From: Legionella oakridgensis ATCC 33761 = DSM 21215
GTDB taxonomy: Bacteria; Pseudomonadota; Gammaproteobacteria; Legionellales; Legionellaceae
Length of the DNA stretch: 50,245 bases
Reading direction: 5' to 3'
NCBI RefSeq assembly: GCF_000512355.1
Contig: NZ_CP004007.1
Location: 1 to 50,245, forward strand
The notes below the pieces were generated by a model. That model ran no database searches. It worked only from the letters and a program-made list of their open reading frames with translations, and was not told the DNA's origin. Positions 67 to 38,612 of the stretch are shown in pieces (the first letter of the stretch is position 1; each line of letters begins with the position of its first letter). A program made the translations under genes and the position numbers.

Positions 67-942
67 TTAATCTCTTTCGCTCATCAGCTTAATAAGCCAA
101 TCAACTTCACTAGCAGAATTCACTTCAATAATCACTTTTCCCTTACCCTCAGCATTTACTTTTACAGAAACATTTGTTGTAAATTGTTGGGATAAATATG
201 TACTCCACTCTTCACATTTGTCGTGCAGTGCGACAGCAAGAGTCTTGTTATGCCCTTCATTCTCCGTTGACTTCAATCGATTGGCTAAGGCCTCCGTCTC
301 ACGCACATTGAGTTGTTTCTCAATGACGGTACATGCAACCTGATACTGCTGCTCTGGCGAAAGTTTCAAAAGCGATCGCGCATGTCCCATATCAATCTTA
401 CCTTCGTTCAACATCGCTATTACTCTAGAATCTAAAGATAGTAAGCGAAGCGTATTAGTAACCGAAACTCTAGACCGCCCTATCATTTGTGCTATGTCCT
501 CATGAGTCATTTGAAACTCTTCGCGAAACCGATTCAATGCCAATGCCTCTTCAATCGGATTTAGATTTTCACGTTGAATATTTTCAATCAGTGAAAATGC
601 GAGAGCAACATTATCGTCAATATTTCTAATAATAACAGGCACATAAGTTAATCCTGCTTTTTTTGCTGCTCGCCAACGTCTCTCGCCAGCAATAATCTCA
701 TAACGTTCTTCTGCAATCTTTCTAACAATAAGTGGCTGGATGATCCCTTGGACTTTGATGGAGTTTGCGAGCTCGTCTAAAATAGATTCATCAAATTGTT
801 TTCTAGGCTGATATTTGCCAGAATTTAATAACTCAACAGCTAAATGAGTTATCGATTCGCTGCTGGGTATAGATTCTCCATCCTGGAATGAATTGTCTAA
901 GGCTCGAAGCAACTTCAATCCCTTCAATTCTAAATTTGACAC
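67..942 (-). CDS. parB: ParB/Spo0J-family partition protein (chromosomal type)
   Basis: A 291-residue ParB-family DNA-binding protein. The N-terminal CTP-binding fold shows GERRWRA (86-92) and ENIQRENLN (120-128), and a helix-turn-helix follows at about 145-168 (EDIAQMIGRSRVSVTNTLRL). Family members load on parS and spread as CTP-dependent clamps. The start is GTG at 942, preceded by GAGGAGAG. No ParA partner is adjacent in the same orientation; the nearest ParA (1298) is divergent and has its own P1-type ParB. This copy may therefore be an orphan, share that ParA, or act as a regulator or anti-silencer. The family is certain; the role is open. Confidence 0.9.
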   Translation of the reverse strand: MSNLELKGLKLLRALDNSFQDGESIPSSESITHLAVELLNSGKYQPRKQFDESILDELANSIKVQGIIQPLIVRKIAEERYEIIAGERRWRAAKKAGLTYVPVIIRNIDDNVALAFSLIENIQRENLNPIEEALALNRFREEFQMTHEDIAQMIGRSRVSVTNTLRLLSLDSRVIAMLNEGKIDMGHARSLLKLSPEQQYQVACTVIEKQLNVRETEALANRLKSTENEGHNKTLAVALHDKCEEWSTYLSQQFTTNVSVKVNAEGKGKVIIEVNSASEVDWLIKLMSERD

Positions 943-962
943 GAGTGTCTCTCCTCAATTTT

Positions 963-1104
963 CCCTGCAAACGTCCCACCCTACCTGTAGACGTCGCACC
1001 ATCAGTTATTTTTCTTATTTTTACTTCCTGAAAACGTCTCACCCTATCCCGTAAACGCCACAGCCATCCCTGCAAACGTCCCTGACCATCCCCGTAAATG
1101 TCCC
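963..1104 (+). repeat. Six-copy iteron array, probable replication origin
   Basis: Six related units begin with CCTG/CCCG at 964, 984, 1027, 1048, 1069 and 1091. The best unit reads CCTGCAAACGTCCCACCCTA. Spacing is 20, 43, 21, 21 and 22 bp, so one slot of two turns is missing or decayed near 1005-1026. The array lies between divergent parB and parA and is followed by AT-rich DNA, as expected for an iteron oriV. The same repeat recurs twice in inverted orientation downstream of the initiator gene (4871-4919), which ties both arrays to that protein. The repeat is seen directly; its function as origin or incompatibility region is inferred. Confidence 0.75.
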
Positions 1105-1297
1105 TCAGATTCTCTTACAACCCTTAAGAACATTGACTCATTCGACTTCTAAACAACTAATAAAAAGATCTTAAAAAAATTAAAACACGTTGTGTTTCTA
1201 TAGTAAATAGAAATTCCACTTTTCTGTTGCATTTTCAACAAATCACAGATAAATTATAAAAAATGTGAAAATCAATTATTTTAATAAAAGGGAAATC
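1105..1297 (+). promoter_or_regulatory. AT-rich leader of parA with a small palindrome
   Basis: This AT-rich stretch separates the iterons from parA. It holds a short palindrome, AAACAC (1183-1188) and GTGTTT (1192-1197) around GTT. Type Ia ParA proteins usually repress their own promoter through such a site, so this is a candidate par operator, and the AT-richness could also serve origin melting. No single -35/-10 pair stands out. Confidence 0.35.
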
Positions 1298-2506
1298 ATG
1301 CTTGATCCTCAAATCATTACGTATGGTACAGATAATCCAGAACAGTTAATGGATAAGTTCTATCAAGCGGGTAACGAAATGTTACTGACATTAAGAAATT
1401 TTGTAATTAATCCCGAAAAAAGAAAAAAACCAAGAACTTGGGGAGCAATTGAGGCCGCAAAAATGGTTAAGGTTTCCGACCCTACATTTAGAAAATTATT
1501 AGAGTCCTCAGACGATATACCAGGACTAGTAATTGAAGATTCTGAAAATGGCAGAAAAGTTAAAAAATATACATTGGCCGCCATTAATGCACTTAGAGAT
1601 AAAGCAGAAACACGATATAAAAGACCAAAAGGTTCTAAATGCTTAACCATAGCTGTTTCCAACTTAAAAGGCGGAGTTGGAAAAACTGAAACTACCGTTG
1701 ATTTAGGAAAAAAGATTGCCATAGAAGGCTTAAAAGTTTTGCTGTTGGACTTCGATGCACAAGGAACAGCAACTTTAATTAGCTCAGGACTAATCCCCGA
1801 CTTAGAGCTGCGTTATGAAGATACAATAACCAATGTGTTAATTTCAAATCCTAACAACATCAAAAATGTAATACTAAAAACGCATTTTGATGGTCTGGAT
1901 ATCATCCCTGCTAACTTAGCCATACAAGATTGTGATCTTATTTTACCTAATGAAAAAGAAAACAATCACGAGCGTTTGGGTTCTCCTTTCATTCGTTTAT
2001 CGGAGTCATTAAAGATTATTAAAAATCAATATGATGTTATTTTAATCGATTGCGGCCCTAATCTTGGCTTGCTTACGCTCAATGCAATCATTGCCTGTGA
2101 TGGAATCATTATACCTATTCCTCCAAGTATGAACGACTACTCAAGTTTTATTATGTACACGGCTACCTTACGCAATATGTTTAAAGAATTACCTTCCAAA
2201 AAATTGGAGTATTTGCGAATACTCATTTCCAAGCACAGCGGAAGTAACGAAGCATTACAGATGGAAAATATGATGCGAGAGCAGTTTGGTAGATATATTC
2301 TCACAAATCATATGTGCGAAACCGTTGAAGTGGCAAAAGCAGCTAATGAAATTGGAACCATTTATGATGTTTCAAAACCGCGTGGCAGCCGTGAAGCTTA
2401 CCGCAGAGCTTTGCAACATTTAGATGATGTGAACCTCGAAATTATTAATAACTTTAAAGAAATATGGGAAAAGCAATCTAAAGCATCCTTTGTAAGTGGA
2501 GAGTAA
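1298..2506 (+). CDS. parA: ParA-family partition ATPase, type Ia
   Basis: A Walker-type ParA ATPase of about 402 residues that would move plasmid copies over the nucleoid together with ParB. Counting from a possible GTG at 1265, an N-terminal helix-turn-helix region lies at about 60-115 and the deviant Walker A motif KGGVGKT at 135-141. LLLDFDAQGTAT (Walker A') and VILIDCGPNLG (Walker B) follow. The long N-terminal DNA-binding region marks the P1/P7 type, which autorepresses. ATG 1298 is chosen because it follows AAGGGA at good spacing; the GTG at 1265 has no ribosome site. The stop is 1 bp from the next gene, so parA and parB form one operon. Confidence 0.93.
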   Translation: MLDPQIITYGTDNPEQLMDKFYQAGNEMLLTLRNFVINPEKRKKPRTWGAIEAAKMVKVSDPTFRKLLESSDDIPGLVIEDSENGRKVKKYTLAAINALRDKAETRYKRPKGSKCLTIAVSNLKGGVGKTETTVDLGKKIAIEGLKVLLLDFDAQGTATLISSGLIPDLELRYEDTITNVLISNPNNIKNVILKTHFDGLDIIPANLAIQDCDLILPNEKENNHERLGSPFIRLSESLKIIKNQYDVILIDCGPNLGLLTLNAIIACDGIIIPIPPSMNDYSSFIMYTATLRNMFKELPSKKLEYLRILISKHSGSNEALQMENMMREQFGRYILTNHMCETVEVAKAANEIGTIYDVSKPRGSREAYRRALQHLDDVNLEIINNFKEIWEKQSKASFVSGE

Positions 2507-2507
2507 C

Positions 2508-3515
2508 ATGGATAATAGTAAGCGAAACGTTCATAATTCTGGCCCATTAGGTATGCTAATGAAAAGCGGTCAAGTAAAAAAAATAGAGGCTGCTGATGAG
2601 GAAGTTGTTTTAAAACAAGCTGCCCCTAAAACTCCATCTTATTTTAAAACTCAGTCTGGGATTGAATTTGCTGAGCAGGAATTAATTTATGTAAACCCAG
2701 AGGAATGCGAACCTTGGAAATACGCAAACCGCCAAGAAAGCGAGTTAGGTGATATTGATGGGCTAATTGATTCTATTAAATCAAACAAACAATTACAGCC
2801 TGCTTTAGTGAGAAATCATCCTAATCCTCATGGGAAAATAAAGTATGAGGTAATTTTTGGTCGAAGAAGGCATATTGCTTGTATGCGGCTGGGGATCCCT
2901 TTTCTTGTAATCAGAAAAGATATTCCCAATGTACAAGATGCGATTGCATCTCAAGATGCTGAGAACAAATTACGAAATGATGTTAGTAATTATTCCAATG
3001 CAATCCTGTATAAACGATTGTTGTCGGATAATGTATTTAAAACCGAAAAAGAACTTTCGGAAAAATTACGTATTTCCTATTCCACATTTAACGAATTGAT
3101 GGCTTATTCAAAAATTCCAGAAGATATTGTGCGTGCTATTCCAGATATACACGCCCTCTCTAAACAACTTGCTGTAAAGATTGTTCAATTAATTAATAAG
3201 TCTAAAGACAACTATAACAAGATGCTTTCTATTGCTAATCAGTTAGGTAGAACAATTACTTCACAGGCTAAATTAGAAAAGATATTTGAAGAGAAGACGT
3301 TACAACAAAAAACTGAATCTAAAAGTTCAAGTGATGCAAAGTTTTACACCTCTGTAAATGGAAAAAAACTATTTACCTTTAAGTCAGATTATCGAGGACT
3401 TCCATCGATTGTACTGAACAAAGAAATCTCTAGTTTTGTGAAGGTAGAAGATTTGTGCGAACACGTTTCAAATTATTTAGAAAAAATTATAGCAGAATCC
3501 GAGTACTCGGATTAA
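2508..3515 (+). CDS. parB: P1-type ParB centromere-binding protein
   Basis: A 335-residue ParB family protein and partner of the preceding ParA. The family motif appears as FGRRRH (about 117-122), with a helix-turn-helix around residues 170-200 (EKLRISYSTFNELMAYSKIP) and a C-terminal domain after a Ser/Lys-rich linker, as in P1/SopB-type proteins. ATG 2508 is preferred over GTG 2496: it has GGAG upstream and sits 1 bp after the parA stop. The last codons (ESEYSD) are encoded inside the first of two perfect 18-bp palindromes, which are candidate binding sites for this protein. It differs clearly from the other ParB at 67-942. Confidence 0.9.
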   Translation: MDNSKRNVHNSGPLGMLMKSGQVKKIEAADEEVVLKQAAPKTPSYFKTQSGIEFAEQELIYVNPEECEPWKYANRQESELGDIDGLIDSIKSNKQLQPALVRNHPNPHGKIKYEVIFGRRRHIACMRLGIPFLVIRKDIPNVQDAIASQDAENKLRNDVSNYSNAILYKRLLSDNVFKTEKELSEKLRISYSTFNELMAYSKIPEDIVRAIPDIHALSKQLAVKIVQLINKSKDNYNKMLSIANQLGRTITSQAKLEKIFEEKTLQQKTESKSSSDAKFYTSVNGKKLFTFKSDYRGLPSIVLNKEISSFVKVEDLCEHVSNYLEKIIAESEYSD

Positions 3516-3538
3516 GAGTGAATCCGAGTACTCGGATT
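3496..3538. repeat. Two identical 18-bp perfect palindromes (candidate parS or operator)
   Basis: AATCCGAGTACTCGGATT occurs exactly at 3496-3513 and again at 3521-3538, separated by AAGAGTG. Centre-to-centre distance is 25 bp. The first copy overlaps the last codons and stop of parB, and the second ends 26 bp before the start of the initiator gene. Paired palindromes between par and rep genes suit a plasmid parS, or an operator that a homodimer uses to repress rep. There is no T-run, so a terminator is less likely. Confidence 0.7.
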
Positions 3539-3564
3539 GCTTGTTAGGTGGCATGGAGAAACGT

Positions 3565-4842
3565 ATGGGAAGCGTGGCAATAAATAATAAGAATCTTGAG
3601 CTAAAAAAACATGTTAATGCAATACATTGCTCTAATAATCTGTCATTGGTGCAGCGGAAGCTGTTTAATGCGTTACTCTTTAATGCTTATCCAGATCTTC
3701 CCTACAAACAACAATTTGAAATCAAAGGAAAAGATTTATATCAACTGATTGGCTACAATAGCAAAGATACTGCAAAGCTAAAAGAAGCCTTGATTGGATT
3801 AATTACAATCGCTATTGAATGGAACGTTATTGATTGCTCCACAGGACAAGAAAAAAAATGGAAGGCGAGTTCCATATTGGCATCTGCCGAACTTTCAAAC
3901 GGCGTTTGCATTTATGAATACAGCCATGTAATGAAAGACCTTATGTATCAACCTGAGATTTATGGTCAAATAAACATGGAGCTGATTTCAAAATTCAAAT
4001 CAGGCTATGGTTTGGCGCTTTATGAGAACTGTATTCGCTACAAAGGGCTTGCGCAAACACCCTGGTTTCCACTAGATATATTTAGAAAGTTAATGGGTGT
4101 GTTTGATGGGAAATATCAAGTATTTAAAGACTTTAAGAAAAGAGTTTTGGATGTTGGGGTGAATGAGGTAAATACAGTATCGCCCATTCGCATTTTTCCT
4201 GAAATAGAACGAGTTAATCAAAAAGTCACGAGAATACGATTCAAGTTAGAAAAAAATGTTGATGAATCCCCTATTCCCCTAAATAACTTATCGATAGACG
4301 AAGAATTAAAACAACTTCTGATTAATACATTTGGGTTTTCAACTCAAATGATTGATGAGGCATATGCAAAATATGATAACGACTATATACGAGAGAAAGT
4401 GGAGATCATCACTCAATCAGAAAGTTTTATTGCGGGGAAGATTAGAGGCCTCGCTGGATATTTGATTGAAGCACTCAAAAAAGATTATAAGCATAGTAAA
4501 TCAAGCAAAGCATTAATCAATGAGCGCCGCAAGATCTCAGAAGCGAAGGAAAAAGAAAAGAAAGAAAAACAAGAAGTCCAAACTGAACGTTACAGGCAAT
4601 ATGTTAATAAAAAGATAAATAACTACCTTACAAATTTAACAGAAGATCAAAAAAGCGACTTAATTAGTGAATTTGAGAATTATATAAAAACTCAAAGTAG
4701 TATTCTCAAGAATTGGTATCAAAAACATAGGTTAGAGCACCCTGCAACCAAAGGATGTTTTCATAGTTTCATAAGAGAGAATAAACAAAGTGCAGTGGGA
4801 AACATTATATCTATGGAAGATTATATTGAATTAATTGAATAG
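3565..4842 (+). CDS. Plasmid replication initiator, Rep_3/RepB-like winged-helix protein
   Basis: A protein of about 425 residues. Its N-terminal half (KKHVNAIHCSNNLSLVQRKL onward) matches the Rep_3 initiator pattern, with two winged-helix domains in roughly residues 15-230. A lysine/glutamate-rich helical segment around 315-345 links to a distinct C-terminal region. Such proteins bind iterons to open the origin and control copy number. Iterons lie on both sides of the par-rep block. Possible starts are TTG 3541, ATG 3553 and ATG 3565; the last has GGAG six bases upstream. The initiator assignment is confident, the exact subfamily less so. Confidence 0.8.
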   Translation: MGSVAINNKNLELKKHVNAIHCSNNLSLVQRKLFNALLFNAYPDLPYKQQFEIKGKDLYQLIGYNSKDTAKLKEALIGLITIAIEWNVIDCSTGQEKKWKASSILASAELSNGVCIYEYSHVMKDLMYQPEIYGQINMELISKFKSGYGLALYENCIRYKGLAQTPWFPLDIFRKLMGVFDGKYQVFKDFKKRVLDVGVNEVNTVSPIRIFPEIERVNQKVTRIRFKLEKNVDESPIPLNNLSIDEELKQLLINTFGFSTQMIDEAYAKYDNDYIREKVEIITQSESFIAGKIRGLAGYLIEALKKDYKHSKSSKALINERRKISEAKEKEKKEKQEVQTERYRQYVNKKINNYLTNLTEDQKSDLISEFENYIKTQSSILKNWYQKHRLEHPATKGCFHSFIRENKQSAVGNIISMEDYIELIE

Positions 4843-9069: not shown

Positions 9070-9778
9070 ACCATTAATCATCGCCCTCACGTTTCTATCA
9101 ACGGTTGCAGTAGGCGCCAACAGCATCCCCGTGAAAGACAACAGTGATATTGCGTTAACCTTAAGTCAGGGGAATTACAACCGCCTGGTGGTCAAAAACG
9201 ATAAAATCATGGAAGCGGTGTTTCCTCCCAACGCCATGGCGATAAAACGTGATGAACAGGATGGTTCAGTGTATGTGATGTTGTTGGCTGCTAATCCTTT
9301 TACCTTGTTTTTAACCACAGAAGCAGGCCGCCATTTTTCAGTGACATTAAATGGTGAAGAGTCCTTAGGTAAGACCATTGAGCTGGTTCCTTCGCAGCCT
9401 GTTATTACAAAAACAGTAGCTAATACTACAAAAACAAATCCAAAAACAATCGCACAAGAAGCCGTACCCGAAGCCATTCTTGCCATGCTCACGCACATGG
9501 AGCAACAAAAACCGTTTGCTGATGTAAGCGTGAAACGTCAATGGGGCAGGGTGGAACGTTGGTCAAAAGGCTTAACGCTTTTACCCAAAGAATCCTGGGA
9601 CGGCAAGCTGTTAAAAGGTGAGACTATCGAACTATACAATGGTGGCAAGGAACCTTTGGAACTCTCGCAAGAATGGTTTGCTAAAGAGGGAACTCTGGCA
9701 ATTAAATTTTCTAAACCATCGATTGCACCAGGTGAAAAAGCCATGCTGTACCGCGTTCAGGGAGTAAGTCATGGCTAA
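9062..9778 (+). CDS. traK: TraK, VirB9-like secretin of the transfer channel
   Basis: A 238-residue secreted protein (F TraK has 242) with a signal peptide ending near VAVGANS. In F it forms the outer-membrane core complex with TraV and TraB. The early motif PVKDNSDIALTLSQGNYNRL is typical of TraK, and the C-terminal half (KGETIELYNGGKEPLELSQE) is the TraV-binding region of the family. It overlaps traE by 8 bp and traB by 8 bp. Confidence 0.92.
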   Translation: MRKPLIIALTFLSTVAVGANSIPVKDNSDIALTLSQGNYNRLVVKNDKIMEAVFPPNAMAIKRDEQDGSVYVMLLAANPFTLFLTTEAGRHFSVTLNGEESLGKTIELVPSQPVITKTVANTTKTNPKTIAQEAVPEAILAMLTHMEQQKPFADVSVKRQWGRVERWSKGLTLLPKESWDGKLLKGETIELYNGGKEPLELSQEWFAKEGTLAIKFSKPSIAPGEKAMLYRVQGVSHG

Positions 9779-11144
9779 CTGGCAATGGAATAAAATGGTT
9801 AAAGGGTGTCAGGTTCGGACTTTGATTGTGGCTGGAAGTTGTCTGTTTTTTCTTGTTGCCATGATGATTGTGCTATTAGCCGATGGTCGCCCAAAAAAGA
9901 ATCTTGCGGCTAAAAAATCTGTGGATTTAACAGGAATTGTTGAGGAATCGTTTACTGATGCGGTGGCAGACAGTGCCTTAACCTCTCAACAAACAGAACT
10001 GGAATCATTAAGAAAACAAATTGGTGAACTGACCCTTAACATTAAATCAATGGGGGAAGCGCATCAAAAAGAGTTGCAGGCGCAAAAAGAAGAGATTACA
10101 TCTAAAGTACAAGAGTTGGTTTTAGCTAATCAAGAAAAGCAAATCAGTACAGAACAGCAAAATAACCCTTCCGAATTAAAAGAAGTACAAAACCCACAGC
10201 TGTGGCATAACCCCAACACCTATGCCATGAATAACATAATAAATGGCGCTACGGTCCTATCTGATGCAAGTCCTCGCATTAACACAGTATCGTTTCGACC
10301 TAAGCGGCGCATGATAAAAACGCATCACAATTTTTATCTTAACCCTGTCCATTATGTACCTTCCAACACGTCTGTACGGGCAGTTATTTTAGGTGGGGCT
10401 GACGCGGATGCTTCAGTCAATGGACAATCGAAAAACAATGGCGTGATGCTCTTTAAGTTCTTGGAAGACGGCACATTGCCTAATGGTCAGCGCTCACGCT
10501 TGAGAGGGTGTCGCGTCAGTGCCAATTCGTATGGGGATATTTCCAGCGAACGTGCTTATGGAACGCTTTATCGCCTATCGTGCGCTCATCCAGGTGAGCC
10601 GATTATTGATAAGGAAGTAACCGGCTGGGTGTTTTTCAATGGCAAGGTGGGTATTAAAGGTAAGCCCTTGATGCGTGACAACAAAGTAATGACCTGGGCT
10701 GGGGTAAGTGGTGCGTTATCTGGGATTGCGTCAGCTGCCCAATACGCCCAAAGCGTACAAGCCATTGGACCATATGGTGCAACCTCCGTTGTGCCAAGTA
10801 GTCAAATCGCACCTTTTGCTGCCTATGGCGGTGCTTCCAAAGCAGCTGATACCTTATCTCAGTACTATGTCAAACGAGCAGAACAATACCATCCGGTGAT
10901 TCAAGTAGGTTCTGGCAATGTGGTGACTATTGTCTTTAAAGATGGTTTTTACCTGGAGCCTGACGAAGACAAGAGCCAACATGCGATGCAGAAGCTCAAA
11001 GCACAACAAGAAACTCATGAACTGATAGCAAGCCAGGAGGATAACCAGAATCCTGAGATGAACTTTTCTGTGCCTCCCGAGGTCTTGGGGAAAATTGACC
11101 AGGTGAATACCTTAAGCCGCAATGAAACAGGAGGTTTACGATGA
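9771..11144 (+). CDS. traB: TraB, VirB10-like envelope-spanning scaffold
   Basis: A 457-residue protein (F TraB has 475). An N-terminal membrane anchor lies near residues 17-38, a coiled coil at about 75-125 (repeated Gln/Glu/Lys, HQKELQAQKEEITSKVQEL), and a VirB10 beta-barrel domain from about 200. The domain contains TSVRAVILGGADAD and RLRGCRVSANSYGDISSERA. It links inner and outer membranes and joins TraK and TraV. It overlaps traV by 4 bp (ATGA). Confidence 0.93.
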   Translation: MANWQWNKMVKGCQVRTLIVAGSCLFFLVAMMIVLLADGRPKKNLAAKKSVDLTGIVEESFTDAVADSALTSQQTELESLRKQIGELTLNIKSMGEAHQKELQAQKEEITSKVQELVLANQEKQISTEQQNNPSELKEVQNPQLWHNPNTYAMNNIINGATVLSDASPRINTVSFRPKRRMIKTHHNFYLNPVHYVPSNTSVRAVILGGADADASVNGQSKNNGVMLFKFLEDGTLPNGQRSRLRGCRVSANSYGDISSERAYGTLYRLSCAHPGEPIIDKEVTGWVFFNGKVGIKGKPLMRDNKVMTWAGVSGALSGIASAAQYAQSVQAIGPYGATSVVPSSQIAPFAAYGGASKAADTLSQYYVKRAEQYHPVIQVGSGNVVTIVFKDGFYLEPDEDKSQHAMQKLKAQQETHELIASQEDNQNPEMNFSVPPEVLGKIDQVNTLSRNETGGLR

Positions 11145-32802: not shown

Positions 32803-33531
32803 TTATTGTTTAACTTTAATATAATGCTTATCAAATTCTTTTACTATGTTAGGGCTGTAGTACATTTTTCTCCCACTATTGGGCTTAGAGGGATTAAGCA
32901 GTCTCTCATAGCAATATTTTTTATTATCTATTAAATTCTTCTTGATTTCATGGAAGGGTTCATTCATTTTAAAATTAATATATCTTTTGTATAGCTGGGT
33001 CGTTAATACATCATAATCCCAGGGGTATTTATCTAATATTTCTTCATCAGACAGGTATACTCTAGGAGCATTTTTATCAGGGGTTTGTTGAGCAGAAATT
33101 CCTGGTTCATTCGATTTTACTTTCCGCAGCTTTATATCTATCGCTAACGTAAGATCAAAATTTGTTGTATCACTATTGGCATTTTCCTTTTCAAGACCCT
33201 CAATAAACTTTAATAGTTTTTCTCCACATTTATTTAATGACTCTCCTGTTGCTGAATCAAAATCTCTAAAAAATGATACTGGCATTAGATAAAAATTATA
33301 TTGATCAAGTCTACATCCAAACCACTCATCAACTAAGTGTAAATAATTTTGTAATGAGGCAGTACCATATTCCTGAATTTTAACGTTCAACTTAATGTCA
33401 TTGTTAATAAAATGAGTTGAGTTATCTCGTATTTCCGTTATTGAAACAATATTATCTTTCACTACCTTTGGTATCTTTAGACCATATTCAAAGATTATTT
33501 TATCAAATGCATCAAATAAACTAACGGTCAT
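32803..33531 (-). CDS. DUF3644-type protein, C-terminal part (frame broken)
   Basis: A 242-codon open frame that continues the DUF3644 protein started at 33797. Its formal start ATGACC overlaps the upstream stop as ATGA, but the frame is open further upstream. Reading back gives RNRSGNPMTVSLFDAF, which joins the upstream Lys-rich segment after a one-base shift in a run of seven A. The part contains VSITEIRDNSTHFIN, then a poorly conserved C-terminus. No function is established that I can name; members occur on mobile elements, and a defence role is speculative. Confidence 0.65.
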   Translation of the reverse strand: MTVSLFDAFDKIIFEYGLKIPKVVKDNIVSITEIRDNSTHFINNDIKLNVKIQEYGTASLQNYLHLVDEWFGCRLDQYNFYLMPVSFFRDFDSATGESLNKCGEKLLKFIEGLEKENANSDTTNFDLTLAIDIKLRKVKSNEPGISAQQTPDKNAPRVYLSDEEILDKYPWDYDVLTTQLYKRYINFKMNEPFHEIKKNLIDNKKYCYERLLNPSKPNSGRKMYYSPNIVKEFDKHYIKVKQ

Positions 33532-33797
33532 TGGATTACCAGATCTATTCCTTTTTTTGGTTTTTTCTTTGCTTTATTACCATTTTTTAGCGTCCTATAT
33601 TCCCATACATGAAGCGATGAATCCTTATTATTAGATAGCTGCAGTATTTTTGCTTTTAAAAACAACTCCCAACTATTTATACACAAAATCGAAAATATCT
33701 CCTCACGATATTTAAAATCAGGCTTATTATAAATCTCAATGGCTGAAAGCATTCCAGATATTGATTTATCTAACATTGATCTTGCTCGTGATTTCAT
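33528..33797 (-). CDS. DUF3644-type protein, N-terminal part (frame broken)
   Basis: An 89-codon open frame. SAIEIYNKPDFKYREEIFSI followed by LCINSWELFLKAKIL is the hallmark of the DUF3644 N-terminus. The frame runs off into KKPKKGIDLVIQ and stops, where intact members would continue. The break coincides with A7 followed by GG (minus-strand sense, positions 33558-33552). In the zero frame the codons read CCA AAA AAA GGA, a classic -1 slippery site. It is either a one-base deletion (pseudogene), a sequencing slip, or recoding. ATG 33797 is preferred to TTG 33812. Confidence 0.65.
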   Translation of the reverse strand: MKSRARSMLDKSISGMLSAIEIYNKPDFKYREEIFSILCINSWELFLKAKILQLSNNKDSSLHVWEYRTLKNGNKAKKKPKKGIDLVIQ

Positions 33798-33812
33798 TTT
33801 TTCTCTAAACAA

Positions 33813-36920: not shown

Positions 36921-37946
36921 TTACTGGTTTTCAAATAACTCTTCAATTGTAGATTGCATTTCATCCTGACTCGGCTTAGCATAACGAAAAATTTCTTTAA
37001 TAGAGACATTACCACTGAGCTCTTGAGCAAAATGCACCCCATGCTTATCAGTGACTTTCTTCAAAAAAGTATGCCGCAATTTATGGGGTGTAAATGCAAA
37101 TCGCTCCCCTTCTGGTAAAAAAGCTAAAGCCTGTTTTAATACTCGTTGGCAAATCCGATACACATCTAAAGTCTGTAAACGCGTTCCGTAGCGTGTGATA
37201 AATAATGGCTCATCTTCTTGAGCTTGTCTTCCTTCAAGATATTTATCCAAATACACCCTGCTCTCTTGAGGTAAAGGAATTTTTTGGCTGATTCGTTTCG
37301 ACTTATGCCGTAGTACTTCACATAACCCTTTTTGTCGATATTGACTCACATTCAAAGTAACTACTTCCGATTCCCGGAGGCCTGTACCCAGTAGTAAATA
37401 AAATAGCGCCGTTTCCATTAGGGGATTTTGATTTTTACGCGTGCAACTTTTGATTCGTTGTTCGCAAGCAGACTTTAAGCGCATTAATTGTCTAGATGTT
37501 AAACCATTCCAGTCAGGTGCATCGGTTTGTAAATCCTTCACTTGGGCTAAGGGATCCCCTGCTAATAATGGTCTTTGTTTGTGTAGCCACCGACCTACAT
37601 GTCGAATCGTTGCCATTGTTCGATTTACTGAAGTCGCTTTATAAGGTTTTCCCGTTTGTTCTGAAATCGTTTTACTCAAATTCCTTTGAAAATGTTTACT
37701 TACCGCAGGTGTCCAATTATCAACCGAATCATGCCCTACTTCCATTTGAAAAAATTGAATGAATTTCGAGAGGTCTTTCTTTTTCGCTTGCTCTGTTTTT
37801 TCAGGCGCCCCTCTCACATGCACTGCATAATAATAAGACAACCACGCAGATAAGGAATTGGTATCAAAATGAACATCTAAGGGATGAGAAATCTTATCTA
37901 TCACAAACTTTTGATTTTTGGGATTTTGAACATCCAGTAAATTCAT
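36921..37946 (-). CDS. Tyrosine recombinase of Cre size
   Basis: A 341-residue phage-integrase-family recombinase (Cre has 343). A SAM-like core-binding domain lies at about 30-125. The catalytic domain shows Arg 191 (GTGLRESE), a Lys-rich beta-hairpin near 215-222, HKLR at 288-291 and Tyr 322 (FRYAKPS). The second His/Trp position reads SGN, with Asn 313 in place of the usual His. AAAGGAA lies upstream of the ATG. A 13-6-13 inverted repeat lies 38 bp upstream of the start. It may resolve plasmid multimers or have integrated a module; no att-like direct repeats were found. Confidence 0.88.
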   Translation of the reverse strand: MNLLDVQNPKNQKFVIDKISHPLDVHFDTNSLSAWLSYYYAVHVRGAPEKTEQAKKKDLSKFIQFFQMEVGHDSVDNWTPAVSKHFQRNLSKTISEQTGKPYKATSVNRTMATIRHVGRWLHKQRPLLAGDPLAQVKDLQTDAPDWNGLTSRQLMRLKSACEQRIKSCTRKNQNPLMETALFYLLLGTGLRESEVVTLNVSQYRQKGLCEVLRHKSKRISQKIPLPQESRVYLDKYLEGRQAQEDEPLFITRYGTRLQTLDVYRICQRVLKQALAFLPEGERFAFTPHKLRHTFLKKVTDKHGVHFAQELSGNVSIKEIFRYAKPSQDEMQSTIEELFENQ

Positions 37947-37983
37947 AGGGTTCCTTTTTTGTTTTTTACCAATTATACCCTGT

Positions 37984-38015
37984 TTGTGATGGATAAGGTA
38001 CGTTATCCATCACAA
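37984..38015. other. lox-like recombination site candidate beside the recombinase
   Basis: TTGTGATGGATAA (37984-37996) and TTATCCATCACAA (38003-38015) are perfect inverted 13-bp arms around the 6-bp spacer GGTACG. That is the architecture of a tyrosine-recombinase core site: loxP is 13-8-13 and dif about 11-6-11. The spacer is asymmetric at its outer bases, which would give direction. It lies 38 bp upstream of the recombinase start, so an autoregulatory operator is an alternative, or it may serve both. Confidence 0.6.
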
Positions 38016-38195
38016 TTGAATGCTAATCGAAACACGAATCACTAGCTATACTTATTCTACTTACATTAAATTGAAAATATTATGATGGCTTTCATCTAAA
38101 TCAAAACTTGAGGAAATCCGGCAGCAATTAAGATTTTCATTTTATCCATGAAAGCCTCATTAATAGCCTGGTGTGTACTCTCACAAAGGTAATCA
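38016..38195. other. Non-coding region between the recombinase site and the DsrE gene
   Basis: The only structure seen is a 9-bp inverted repeat, GGCTTTCAT (38087-38095) and ATGAAAGCC (38148-38156), with a 52-base gap. No gene is supported. The stretch separates the leading-region genes from the metalloid genes. Confidence 0.35.
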
Positions 38196-38223
38196 TTGAA
38201 TTCACCTTTATTTCATGTATTCT
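38196..38223 (+). promoter_or_regulatory. Candidate promoter for the DsrE-exporter-permease genes
   Basis: TTGAAT (38196-38201) and TATTCT (38218-38223) are spaced by 16 bp, about 30 bp before ATG 38256. A prediction by eye. No metalloregulator operator was recognised next to it. Confidence 0.35.
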
Positions 38224-38255
38224 GGTATTAAGCCTTTGAGTTTTAATGGAAAGCA

Positions 38256-38612
38256 ATGAGCATATTGATAATTTTTAACCGAGCTCCATACGACGGTACG
38301 GATGTGACTTGGAATGGGTTGCGTCTGGCAGAAAAACTATGTGAGGCCGGTCAAGAAGTACGGATTTTCCTTATGAATGATGCAGTTGATATGGCCCGAG
38401 ATGAGAGTAAACCGCCAGAGGGATACGATCAGGACTTATCTAGAATGCTGAAAATCCTAATTTCCAGGCAAATACAAGTTAAAGTTTGCGGAACATGCAT
38501 GGCACGTTGCGGTATTTACAAAAATCAGCCTTATTTTGAAGGGGCTGAAAAATCGACCATGACAGAGTTGGCTCAATGGGTTGTTTTATCAGATAAAATA
38601 ATTACATTTTGA
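38256..38612 (+). CDS. DsrE-family small protein
   Basis: A 118-residue DsrE/DsrF-like protein. The N-terminus MSILIIFNRAPYDGTDVTWN followed by GLRLAEKLCEAGQEVRIFLM is the DsrE fold, and the conserved Cys motif is VCGTCMARCGI at about 77-87. Family members carry sulfur or act as small redox proteins, and they often accompany metal or arsenic genes. It is the first of three plus-strand genes in the island. The substrate is unknown. Confidence 0.82.
   Translation: MSILIIFNRAPYDGTDVTWNGLRLAEKLCEAGQEVRIFLMNDAVDMARDESKPPEGYDQDLSRMLKILISRQIQVKVCGTCMARCGIYKNQPYFEGAEKSTMTELAQWVVLSDKIITF

What the first reader, a model, noticed from the sequence alone, without database searches (positions are those of the whole stretch)
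37984..38015. A Cre-like recombinase with an adjacent lox-like 13-6-13 site
A 341-residue tyrosine recombinase stands beside a perfect inverted repeat with 13-bp arms and a 6-bp asymmetric spacer. The size (Cre 343 residues) and arm length (loxP 13 bp) both match a stand-alone resolution system. The plasmid context gives it a job: resolving multimers so the par system can work. I know no described Legionella plasmid resolution pair of this form. The Asn at the usual second His position makes the enzyme itself unusual.
Basis: partly seen in the sequence, partly recalled or inferred. Interest (0 to 1): 0.75.

Follow-up and report, generated by a model that had tools for sequence, protein, structure and literature searches.

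The report
Legionella plasmid recombinase and crossover site
A plasmid of the Legionella family carries a DNA-rejoining enzyme next to its own short crossover site, and related plasmids and chromosomes show joins exactly at that site, so it looks like a self-contained system that separates, and sometimes mixes, plasmids.

Summary
The 13-6-13 palindrome at 37984-38015 is real and the only one in its genome. It lies 37 bp upstream of an intact 341-aa tyrosine recombinase. Across 143 Legionellaceae genomes the recombinase is in 53, the site in 50, both in 42. Of 45 distinct recombinase loci, 43 keep spacer and gene-side arm just upstream. The strongest evidence is a set of junctions: in four pairs of loci the DNA is identical up to the site and first differs at site columns 24-26, just past the spacer; in one genome two plasmids share 17.6 kb that ends there. 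I also found a third half-site inside the recombinase gene (37894-37906), at near-constant spacing, with almost no synonymous change, whose sequence changes together with the gene-side arm. By sequence the enzyme is nearer Xer than Cre; the layout resembles TnpI/irs. Recombination at the site is strongly inferred; multimer resolution as its job is plausible but not shown. Many copies are chromosomal, which a plasmid-only role does not explain.

The parts
37984..38015 (-). core crossover site, 13-6-13 perfect dyad (gene sense TTGTGATGGATAA-CGTACC-TTATCCATCACAA)
   Evidence: spacer and gene-side arm kept upstream of the gene in 43 of 45 distinct recombinase loci
37997..38002 (-). 6-bp spacer, CGTACC in gene sense; presumed strand-exchange region
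   Evidence: CGTACC in 40 of 41 loci, CTTACC in 1 (L001 and L057 left out there); junctions of four locus pairs lie just past it
36921..37946 (-). tyrosine recombinase, 341 aa, putative active-site residues R191, H288, R291, N313, Y322
37894..37906 (-). third half-site TTGTGATAGATAA inside the recombinase gene (codons 14-18), 109 bp from the start of the core site
37972..37977 (-). TATAAT, -10-like hexamer 6 bp inside of the core site
   Evidence: best -10-like hexamer at offset 6 in 37 of 43 loci; the strict sigma-70 scan found no promoter here
37904..37916 (-). IHF-consensus-like stretch next to the third half-site (weak lead; consensus recalled)
   Evidence: 14 exact, 22 with one mismatch, 7 worse, of 43 loci
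67..4842 (.). plasmid maintenance block: ParB (67-942 -), ParA (1265-2506 +), ParB-like (2496-3515 +), Rep3 initiator (3541-4842 +)

Best explanation
A self-contained site-specific recombination module. The recombinase binds the two 13-bp arms of the site just upstream of its own gene and exchanges strands within the CGTACC spacer. SHOWN by comparison: the site is conserved with the gene, and DNA on its two sides has been re-partnered within a few bases of the spacer. INFERRED: the adjacent recombinase is the catalyst; its usual job on a low-copy conjugative plasmid is to turn multimers back into monomers so that partitioning works; the third half-site in the gene's 5' end is an accessory binding point that biases the reaction or regulates the gene, as the DR subsites do for TnpI; the site may overlap the gene's promoter, so binding could also repress the gene. 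Occasional recombination between sites on different molecules fuses or mixes plasmids, which explains the mosaic junctions.
For: Co-occurrence: 42 of 53 recombinase genomes have a site, against 8 of 90 others. Site upstream of the gene in 43 of 45 distinct loci. Four pairs identical on the left and divergent on the right, first difference at site column 24, 25, 25 or 26. G068 plasmid contigs C2 and C3 identical over C2 39742-57338, the right edge in the site. Converse case: L034 against L035 and L036, recombinase 96-97% identical, 37-bp gap 95-97%, flank beyond the site at background, one mismatch within the site. Distal arm more diverse than gene-side arm: 0.168 against 0.081 (28 loci, identity 80% or more), 0.158 against 0.089 (13 loci below), 0.175 against 0.142 (all 41). 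Third half-site: motif exact in 42 of 43; spacing 109 (34), 108 (3) or 119 (4) bp, the other two 104 and 111; synonymous difference 0.02 against gene mean 0.454, 0 of 20,000 same-residue codon draws as low (21 of 20,000 in the 12 loci below 80%). Gene-side arm and third half-site carry GGG at positions 4-6 together in 11 loci and neither does in the other 32 (read). ParA/ParB and Rep3 on the same plasmid.
Against: No activity is measured. Many recombinase genes and sites lie on chromosome-sized contigs, and decayed copies are common, so plasmid resolution cannot be the whole story. 11 of 53 recombinase genomes have no site at up to 2 mismatches; in 10 of them the best recombinase match is partial, the other (G051) has a replaced left arm. 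L021 has an open recombinase and no site in the 4 kb held. In the Bandiella homolog that was scanned no dyad of this form was found. The junction picture is not always simple: G068 C2 and G064:C15 match closely only from about column 96, just before the third half-site, with 20 differences between there and the core site, so a second break lies inside the module. Codons 2-9, 10-13 and 24-30 are also constrained at synonymous positions, so part of the signal may be general 5'-end constraint. All four left-identical pairs share the left side only, and two shared flanks are short (537 and 949 bp), so a mobile left flank is conceivable for those.
Confidence: 0.7

Rival explanations
1. The palindrome is only an operator: the protein (or another repressor) binds it to control the recombinase promoter, and no strand exchange happens there.
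For: A -10-like hexamer sits 6 bp inside the site in 37 of 43 loci; the third half-site could help repression by looping; TnpI also regulates expression from its irs site (PMC7157771 passages).
Against: An operator does not explain left flanks identical up to the site and different right after the spacer in four locus pairs, a spacer kept as CGTACC in 40 of 41 loci, or sites without a nearby intact gene. No full promoter was found by the strict scan.
Confidence: 0.07
2. An integrase-type module: the enzyme mainly integrates and excises plasmids or islands at matching sites on chromosomes, with multimer resolution incidental.
For: Open recombinase plus perfect site in chromosome contigs of over 3 Mb (G118, G126); in G118 gene and site lie near one edge of a region of about 12.5 kb that differs from G117; in L. 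fallonii the flank joined to the recombinase on the plasmid is joined to other DNA on the chromosome at the site (L097/L002).
Against: No partner site was found in the stretches held around the G118 and G126 copies, and the site is about 200 bp from the boundary; Pfam shows no arm-binding domain; 35 of 40 stretches of up to 20 kb scanned hold a single site.
Confidence: 0.15
3. The sites are acted on by the host chromosomal recombinase XerL, and the adjacent gene is a passenger.
For: XerL is the single dif recombinase of Legionellales, and Coxiella XerL also acts on a plasmid dif site (PMC9765430 abstract and passages).
Against: Legionella dif is described with 10-bp arms near the terminus (PMC9765430 passages); the gene-side arm here changes with the half-site inside the adjacent gene; sites follow the recombinase across genomes.
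Confidence: 0.05

Closest known systems
TnpI/irs of Tn4430 and Tn5401
   Same: tyrosine recombinase; core inverted repeat upstream of its gene; extra binding subsites; promoter in the site (PMC7157771 passages)
   Different: here one extra half-site instead of two, and it lies within the coding sequence; no Tn3 transposase domain among the 19 window proteins scanned; homology to TnpI not tested
Cre/loxP of P1
   Same: one recombinase of about 340 aa, 13-bp arms, stand-alone on a low-copy partitioned replicon (Cre features recalled)
   Different: not matched by sequence; 6-bp instead of 8-bp spacer (8 recalled); Asn where Cre has Trp (recalled); extra half-site
XerL/dif of Legionellales (PMC9765430)
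   Same: single-recombinase system with a perfect dyad, in the same order of bacteria
   Different: dif arms are 10 bp in L. pneumophila and the site is near the terminus, over 400 kb from xerL (passages); this protein shows no similarity to the five other recombinase loci compared from its genome
pdif / Xer modules of Acinetobacter plasmids
   Same: short dyad sites with 6-bp spacer that shuffle plasmid DNA (recalled; PMC7399989 and PMC11705084 seen in a search listing only)
   Different: this site travels with its own recombinase; usually one site per stretch

Membership tests
Tyrosine recombinases | catalytic-domain profile and conserved R..H-x-x-R..Y | tested here: met
   PF00589 E 2.8e-17; R191, H288, R291, Y322 in 40 of 40
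Cre/lox | sequence relationship to Cre | tested here: not met
   PDB searches list XerD, XerC-like and XerA (and one chain labelled as another protein), no Cre, at E up to 0.001 and 0.01
Cre/lox | 8-bp spacer (recalled) | tested here: not met
   6-bp spacer
Cre/lox | resolves plasmid dimers in vivo | not testable with these tools
   bench step, referred
TnpI/irs | core inverted repeat upstream of the recombinase gene | tested here: met
   43 of 45 distinct loci keep spacer and gene-side arm
TnpI/irs | two accessory subsites DR1 and DR2 | tested here: not met
   only one further half-site position recurs between loci
TnpI/irs | part of a Tn3-family transposon | tested here: inconclusive
   no Tn3 transposase domain among 19 window proteins scanned, of 71 listed ORFs
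XerC/XerD equivalogs | score over curated cut-off | tested here: not met
   87.3 bits against 335.15 (XerC), 74.9 against 329.6 (XerD)
XerL/dif | orthology to XerL | tested here: inconclusive
   best tblastn E 1.4 between P0001 and five other PF00589 loci of this genome; which of them is XerL was not established
XerL/dif | chromosomal site near the terminus with 10-bp arms | tested here: not met
   plasmid site with 13-bp arms, only copy in the genome; dif features from PMC9765430 passages
pdif modules | pairs of sites flanking cassettes | tested here: not met
   one site in this plasmid; two strong sites in 2 of 40 stretches scanned (L099, L112)

The most novel reading that the evidence does not exclude
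A family-wide exchange point: Legionellaceae plasmids carrying different versions of this recombinase (74-80% identical DNA) can still recombine with one another at the shared spacer and inner arms, so plasmids and chromosomes swap large segments there, each swap giving the recombinase gene a new upstream flank, while a third half-site written into the gene's coding sequence filters, regulates or even takes part in the reaction.
Probability: 0.3. Interest if true: 0.72.

Novelty: new variant of a known kind. Interest (0 to 1): 0.6.

Why it matters
It gives Legionellaceae plasmids a dedicated recombination pair that I did not find described and explains where some plasmid mosaics break. The half-site inside the coding sequence, where Val-Ile codons become Gly-Val codons and the DNA keeps matching the arm, would be an unusual case of a DNA-binding constraint shaping a coding sequence. 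The naturally diverged arm/recombinase pairs would be a ready set for studying how tyrosine recombinases change site specificity.

Tried and rejected
Structure: an AlphaFold model from 30 homologs was poor (mean pLDDT 58.9; residues 286-326, with H288, R291, N313 and Y322, under 50), so no fold search was run and the Asn question rests on sequence alignment only.

Integrated element with two flanking sites: chromosomal neighbourhoods of G118 and G126 were compared with relatives. No second site was found in the stretches held; the origin of the chromosomal copies is unresolved.

Viral spread: no recombinase relative in viral contigs. The 16-bp core occurs in 15 viral stretches, none with both outer arms; I take these for chance.

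Promoter: the strict consensus scan found no sigma-70 promoter in 37850-38260, so promoter overlap rests on the -10-like hexamer alone.

First thought, corrected: that G064:C15 matches G068 C2 from the core site onward. One search shows the close match starts only near column 96.

Rows dropped: a first flank script stopped with an error and was redone with a corrected spacer position for L002. In one search, 81 tblastn hits (over 60% identity, nearly full length) were reduced to 45 by dropping rows with an identical recombinase stretch. In one search, 40 of the 45 loci were used (5 without an open frame of 330 codons from the assumed start). In one search, L001 and L057 (left arm replaced) were left out of the arm counts.

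Full report
OBSERVATION. The window is the whole 50,245-bp second contig of a two-contig genome and reads as a conjugative plasmid: ParB, ParA, a second ParB-like protein, Rep3, TraD and a TrwC-type relaxase. At 37984-38015 stands TTGTGATGGATAA-GGTACG-TTATCCATCACAA. None of 100 shuffles gave a match with up to 3 mismatches and the genome has no second copy at that setting. The recombinase ORF 36921-37946 (-) starts 37 bp inside the site.

THE ENZYME. Pfam gives Phage_integrase at 2.8e-17. The nearest solved proteins by sequence are XerD (1.3e-7), a XerC-like protein and XerA; no Cre chain appears. It scores far below NCBIfam's XerC and XerD cut-offs. R191, H288, R291, N313 and Y322 are the same in 40 of 40 open homologs; N313 aligns with the last His of the XerD match. 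So the Asn is a family trait. Five other recombinase loci of this genome show no similarity to it (best E 1.4).

DISTRIBUTION. In 143 Legionellaceae genomes the recombinase has a match at E up to 1e-20 in 53, the site pattern with up to 2 mismatches in 50, both in 42, site without recombinase in 8, recombinase without site in 11 (Fisher p about 6e-18, not corrected for kinship). Some of the weaker site matches may be chance. The backward control pattern hit 1 of 143 genomes. Plasmids of L. antarctica, L. fallonii, L. geestiana and L. anisa carry relatives, an L. longbeachae plasmid a 114-bp piece, and two Bandiella (Rickettsiales) plasmids a 46-47% identical protein. Many copies are on chromosome-sized contigs and many are decayed, among them a fragment in this genome's own chromosome. 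No relative was found in viral contigs.

SITE CONSERVATION. After removing rows with an identical gene stretch, 45 distinct near-full-length loci remain; 43 have the spacer and gene-side arm upstream, the spacer starting 56 bp from the assumed start codon in 34, 66 in 4, 55 in 3, 51 and 58 in one each. The two without (L021, L052) still have the third half-site. In L001 and L057 the left arm is replaced by other DNA exactly at the spacer. In the other 41 the spacer is CGTACC in 40 and CTTACC in 1. The distal arm is more diverse than the gene-side arm: 0.168 against 0.081 in 28 loci at 80% identity or more, 0.158 against 0.089 in 13 below, 0.175 against 0.142 over all 41.

JUNCTIONS. Of 23 locus pairs with recombinase DNA at least 88% identical, 20 have an 80-bp flank beyond the site at background identity (0.62 or less), while the gene-side arm matches at 11 to 13 of 13 positions in all 23; the exceptions are L035/L036, L024/L027 and L034/L131. 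In several of the 23 the 37-bp gap between site and gene is itself only 70-78% identical. The sharper cases are pairs that share the left side. Four pairs have left flanks identical over 97 to 300 compared bases, identical spacer, first difference at site column 24, 25, 25 or 26, and 29-80% identity over the next 300 bases: L135/L028 (two plasmid-sized contigs of genome G068), L013/L050 (two contigs of L. septentrionalis, G098), L097/L002 (chromosome and plasmid of L. fallonii, G057) and L108/L031 (G103 and L. quinlivanii). A fifth pair examined, L131/L102, has left flanks at 95% and no difference in the site, and is not informative. In G068 the identical block runs 17.6 kb, C2 39742-57338; its left edge lies in a stretch where the contigs are about 95% alike, fitting ordinary homologous recombination, and its right edge is in the site; against the redundant end of contig C3 the same stretch shows 2 mismatches. 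The L. moravica contig G064:C15 is collinear with G068 C2 for about 55 kb on the gene side and unrelated on the other, but base by base the close match starts only near column 96, just before the third half-site; the bases between core site and there differ at 20 places and look more like L032 (7 differences). So C2 is a mosaic with one break in the core site and a second inside the module. Cleaner is L034 against L035 and L036: gene and gap 95-97% identical, left flank at background. Fusion of molecules at the site followed by homologous recombination elsewhere would explain the pattern.

THIRD HALF-SITE. A 13-bp copy of the arm, in the orientation of the distal arm, lies in codons 14-18 of the gene (window 37894-37906). 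It matches TTGnGnnnGATAA exactly in 42 of 43 loci, one base off in L051; its offset from the site start is 109 in 34, 119 in 4, 108 in 3, 104 in L011 and 111 in L069. 119 is 109 plus about one helical turn. A scan of 300 bp upstream plus the gene found no other half-site position shared by two or more loci, and 11 single occurrences. Synonymous difference over these codons is 0.02 against a gene mean of 0.454; 0 of 20,000 draws of same-residue codons were as low over 40 loci, and 21 of 20,000 within the 12 loci below 80%. In 11 loci the gene-side arm and the third half-site both carry GGG at positions 4-6, so that the codons read Gly-Val instead of Val-Ile; in the other 32 neither does (read; not corrected for kinship). 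Against a narrow reading: codons 2-9, 10-13 and 24-30 are also constrained, while 20-23 are not. An IHF-like stretch overlaps it in some loci (14 exact of 43), a weak lead.

HOW IT WORKS. Tyrosine recombinases cut and rejoin in two steps across a 6-11 bp central region (PMC5357621 passages). The comparison shows the outcome, re-partnering at the site, not the reaction. [quoted passage not shown] With par and rep on the same plasmid, multimer resolution is the most economical job. The third half-site resembles the accessory DR subsites of TnpI/irs, where TnpI binding also modulates expression (PMC7157771 passages). Using one ParDE pair and one HigBA pair as queries, ParDE was found within 2 kb downstream of the gene in 3 of 45 loci (L001, L002, L032) and HigBA upstream in 1 (L016); a VapC gene precedes the recombinase in both Bandiella plasmids.

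WHAT IS NOT EXPLAINED. Open recombinase genes with good sites occur on chromosomes, with no partner site found around G118 and G126. Sites without a nearby intact gene exist; several keep the first 60-140 bases of the recombinase module and look like relics, others do not.

LITERATURE. Abstract and passages seen: PMC9765430. Passages seen: PMC7157771, PMC5357621, PMC8138268. Searches for this pair or its sequence gave no description; the library lacks most subscription papers.

VERDICT. A real, conserved recombinase/site pair with historical exchange at the spacer; new variant of a known kind.

Noticed in passing
L001 and L057, at the spacer: The left arm is replaced exactly at the spacer by the same other DNA; in L001 a site-specific integrase and an IS91-family transposase gene are annotated next to it, as if such an element inserts at this site.
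   Followed up: partly
L138 (G068:C2) against L154 (G064:C15), about column 96 from the site start: A second break in near-identical DNA lies just before the third half-site; whether the half-site itself takes part in exchange is open.
   Followed up: partly
L112 (L. nautarum) 9141-10029: Two sites in direct orientation, starts 857 bp apart, flank a HigBA-like toxin-antitoxin pair, next to the recombinase.
   Followed up: partly
L099 (G066:C13) 8103 and 11916: Two direct sites 3.8 kb apart in a genome without a recombinase match at E up to 1e-20, around an ankyrin-repeat ORF and a DUF4238 ORF.
   Followed up: no
G129:C5 134703 and 159459 (L127, L128): Two sites in opposite orientation about 25 kb apart, each with a recombinase gene: exchange would invert the segment.
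   Followed up: no
window 37857-37877, codons 24-30 of the recombinase: A second stretch with very little synonymous change (0.143; 0 of 20,000 draws as low), not matching the half-site; cause unknown.
   Followed up: partly
G000:C1:2203495-2203821 (L008): A decayed fragment of the same recombinase family in this genome's own chromosome.
   Followed up: no
window 32803-33812: DUF3644 is matched in two parts by two ORFs in different frames that overlap by 4 bp, so the gene looks broken or split.
   Followed up: no
L239 (L. sainthelensi plasmid pLA01-117_113k), 5010-5041: An orphan copy of the site on a conjugative plasmid, with no tyrosine recombinase annotated in the 10 kb around it.
   Followed up: partly
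L005 and L223 (Candidatus Bandiella plasmids): The 46-47% identical recombinase directly follows a VapC toxin gene in both; no dyad of the 13-6-13 form was found beside the one scanned (L005).
   Followed up: partly
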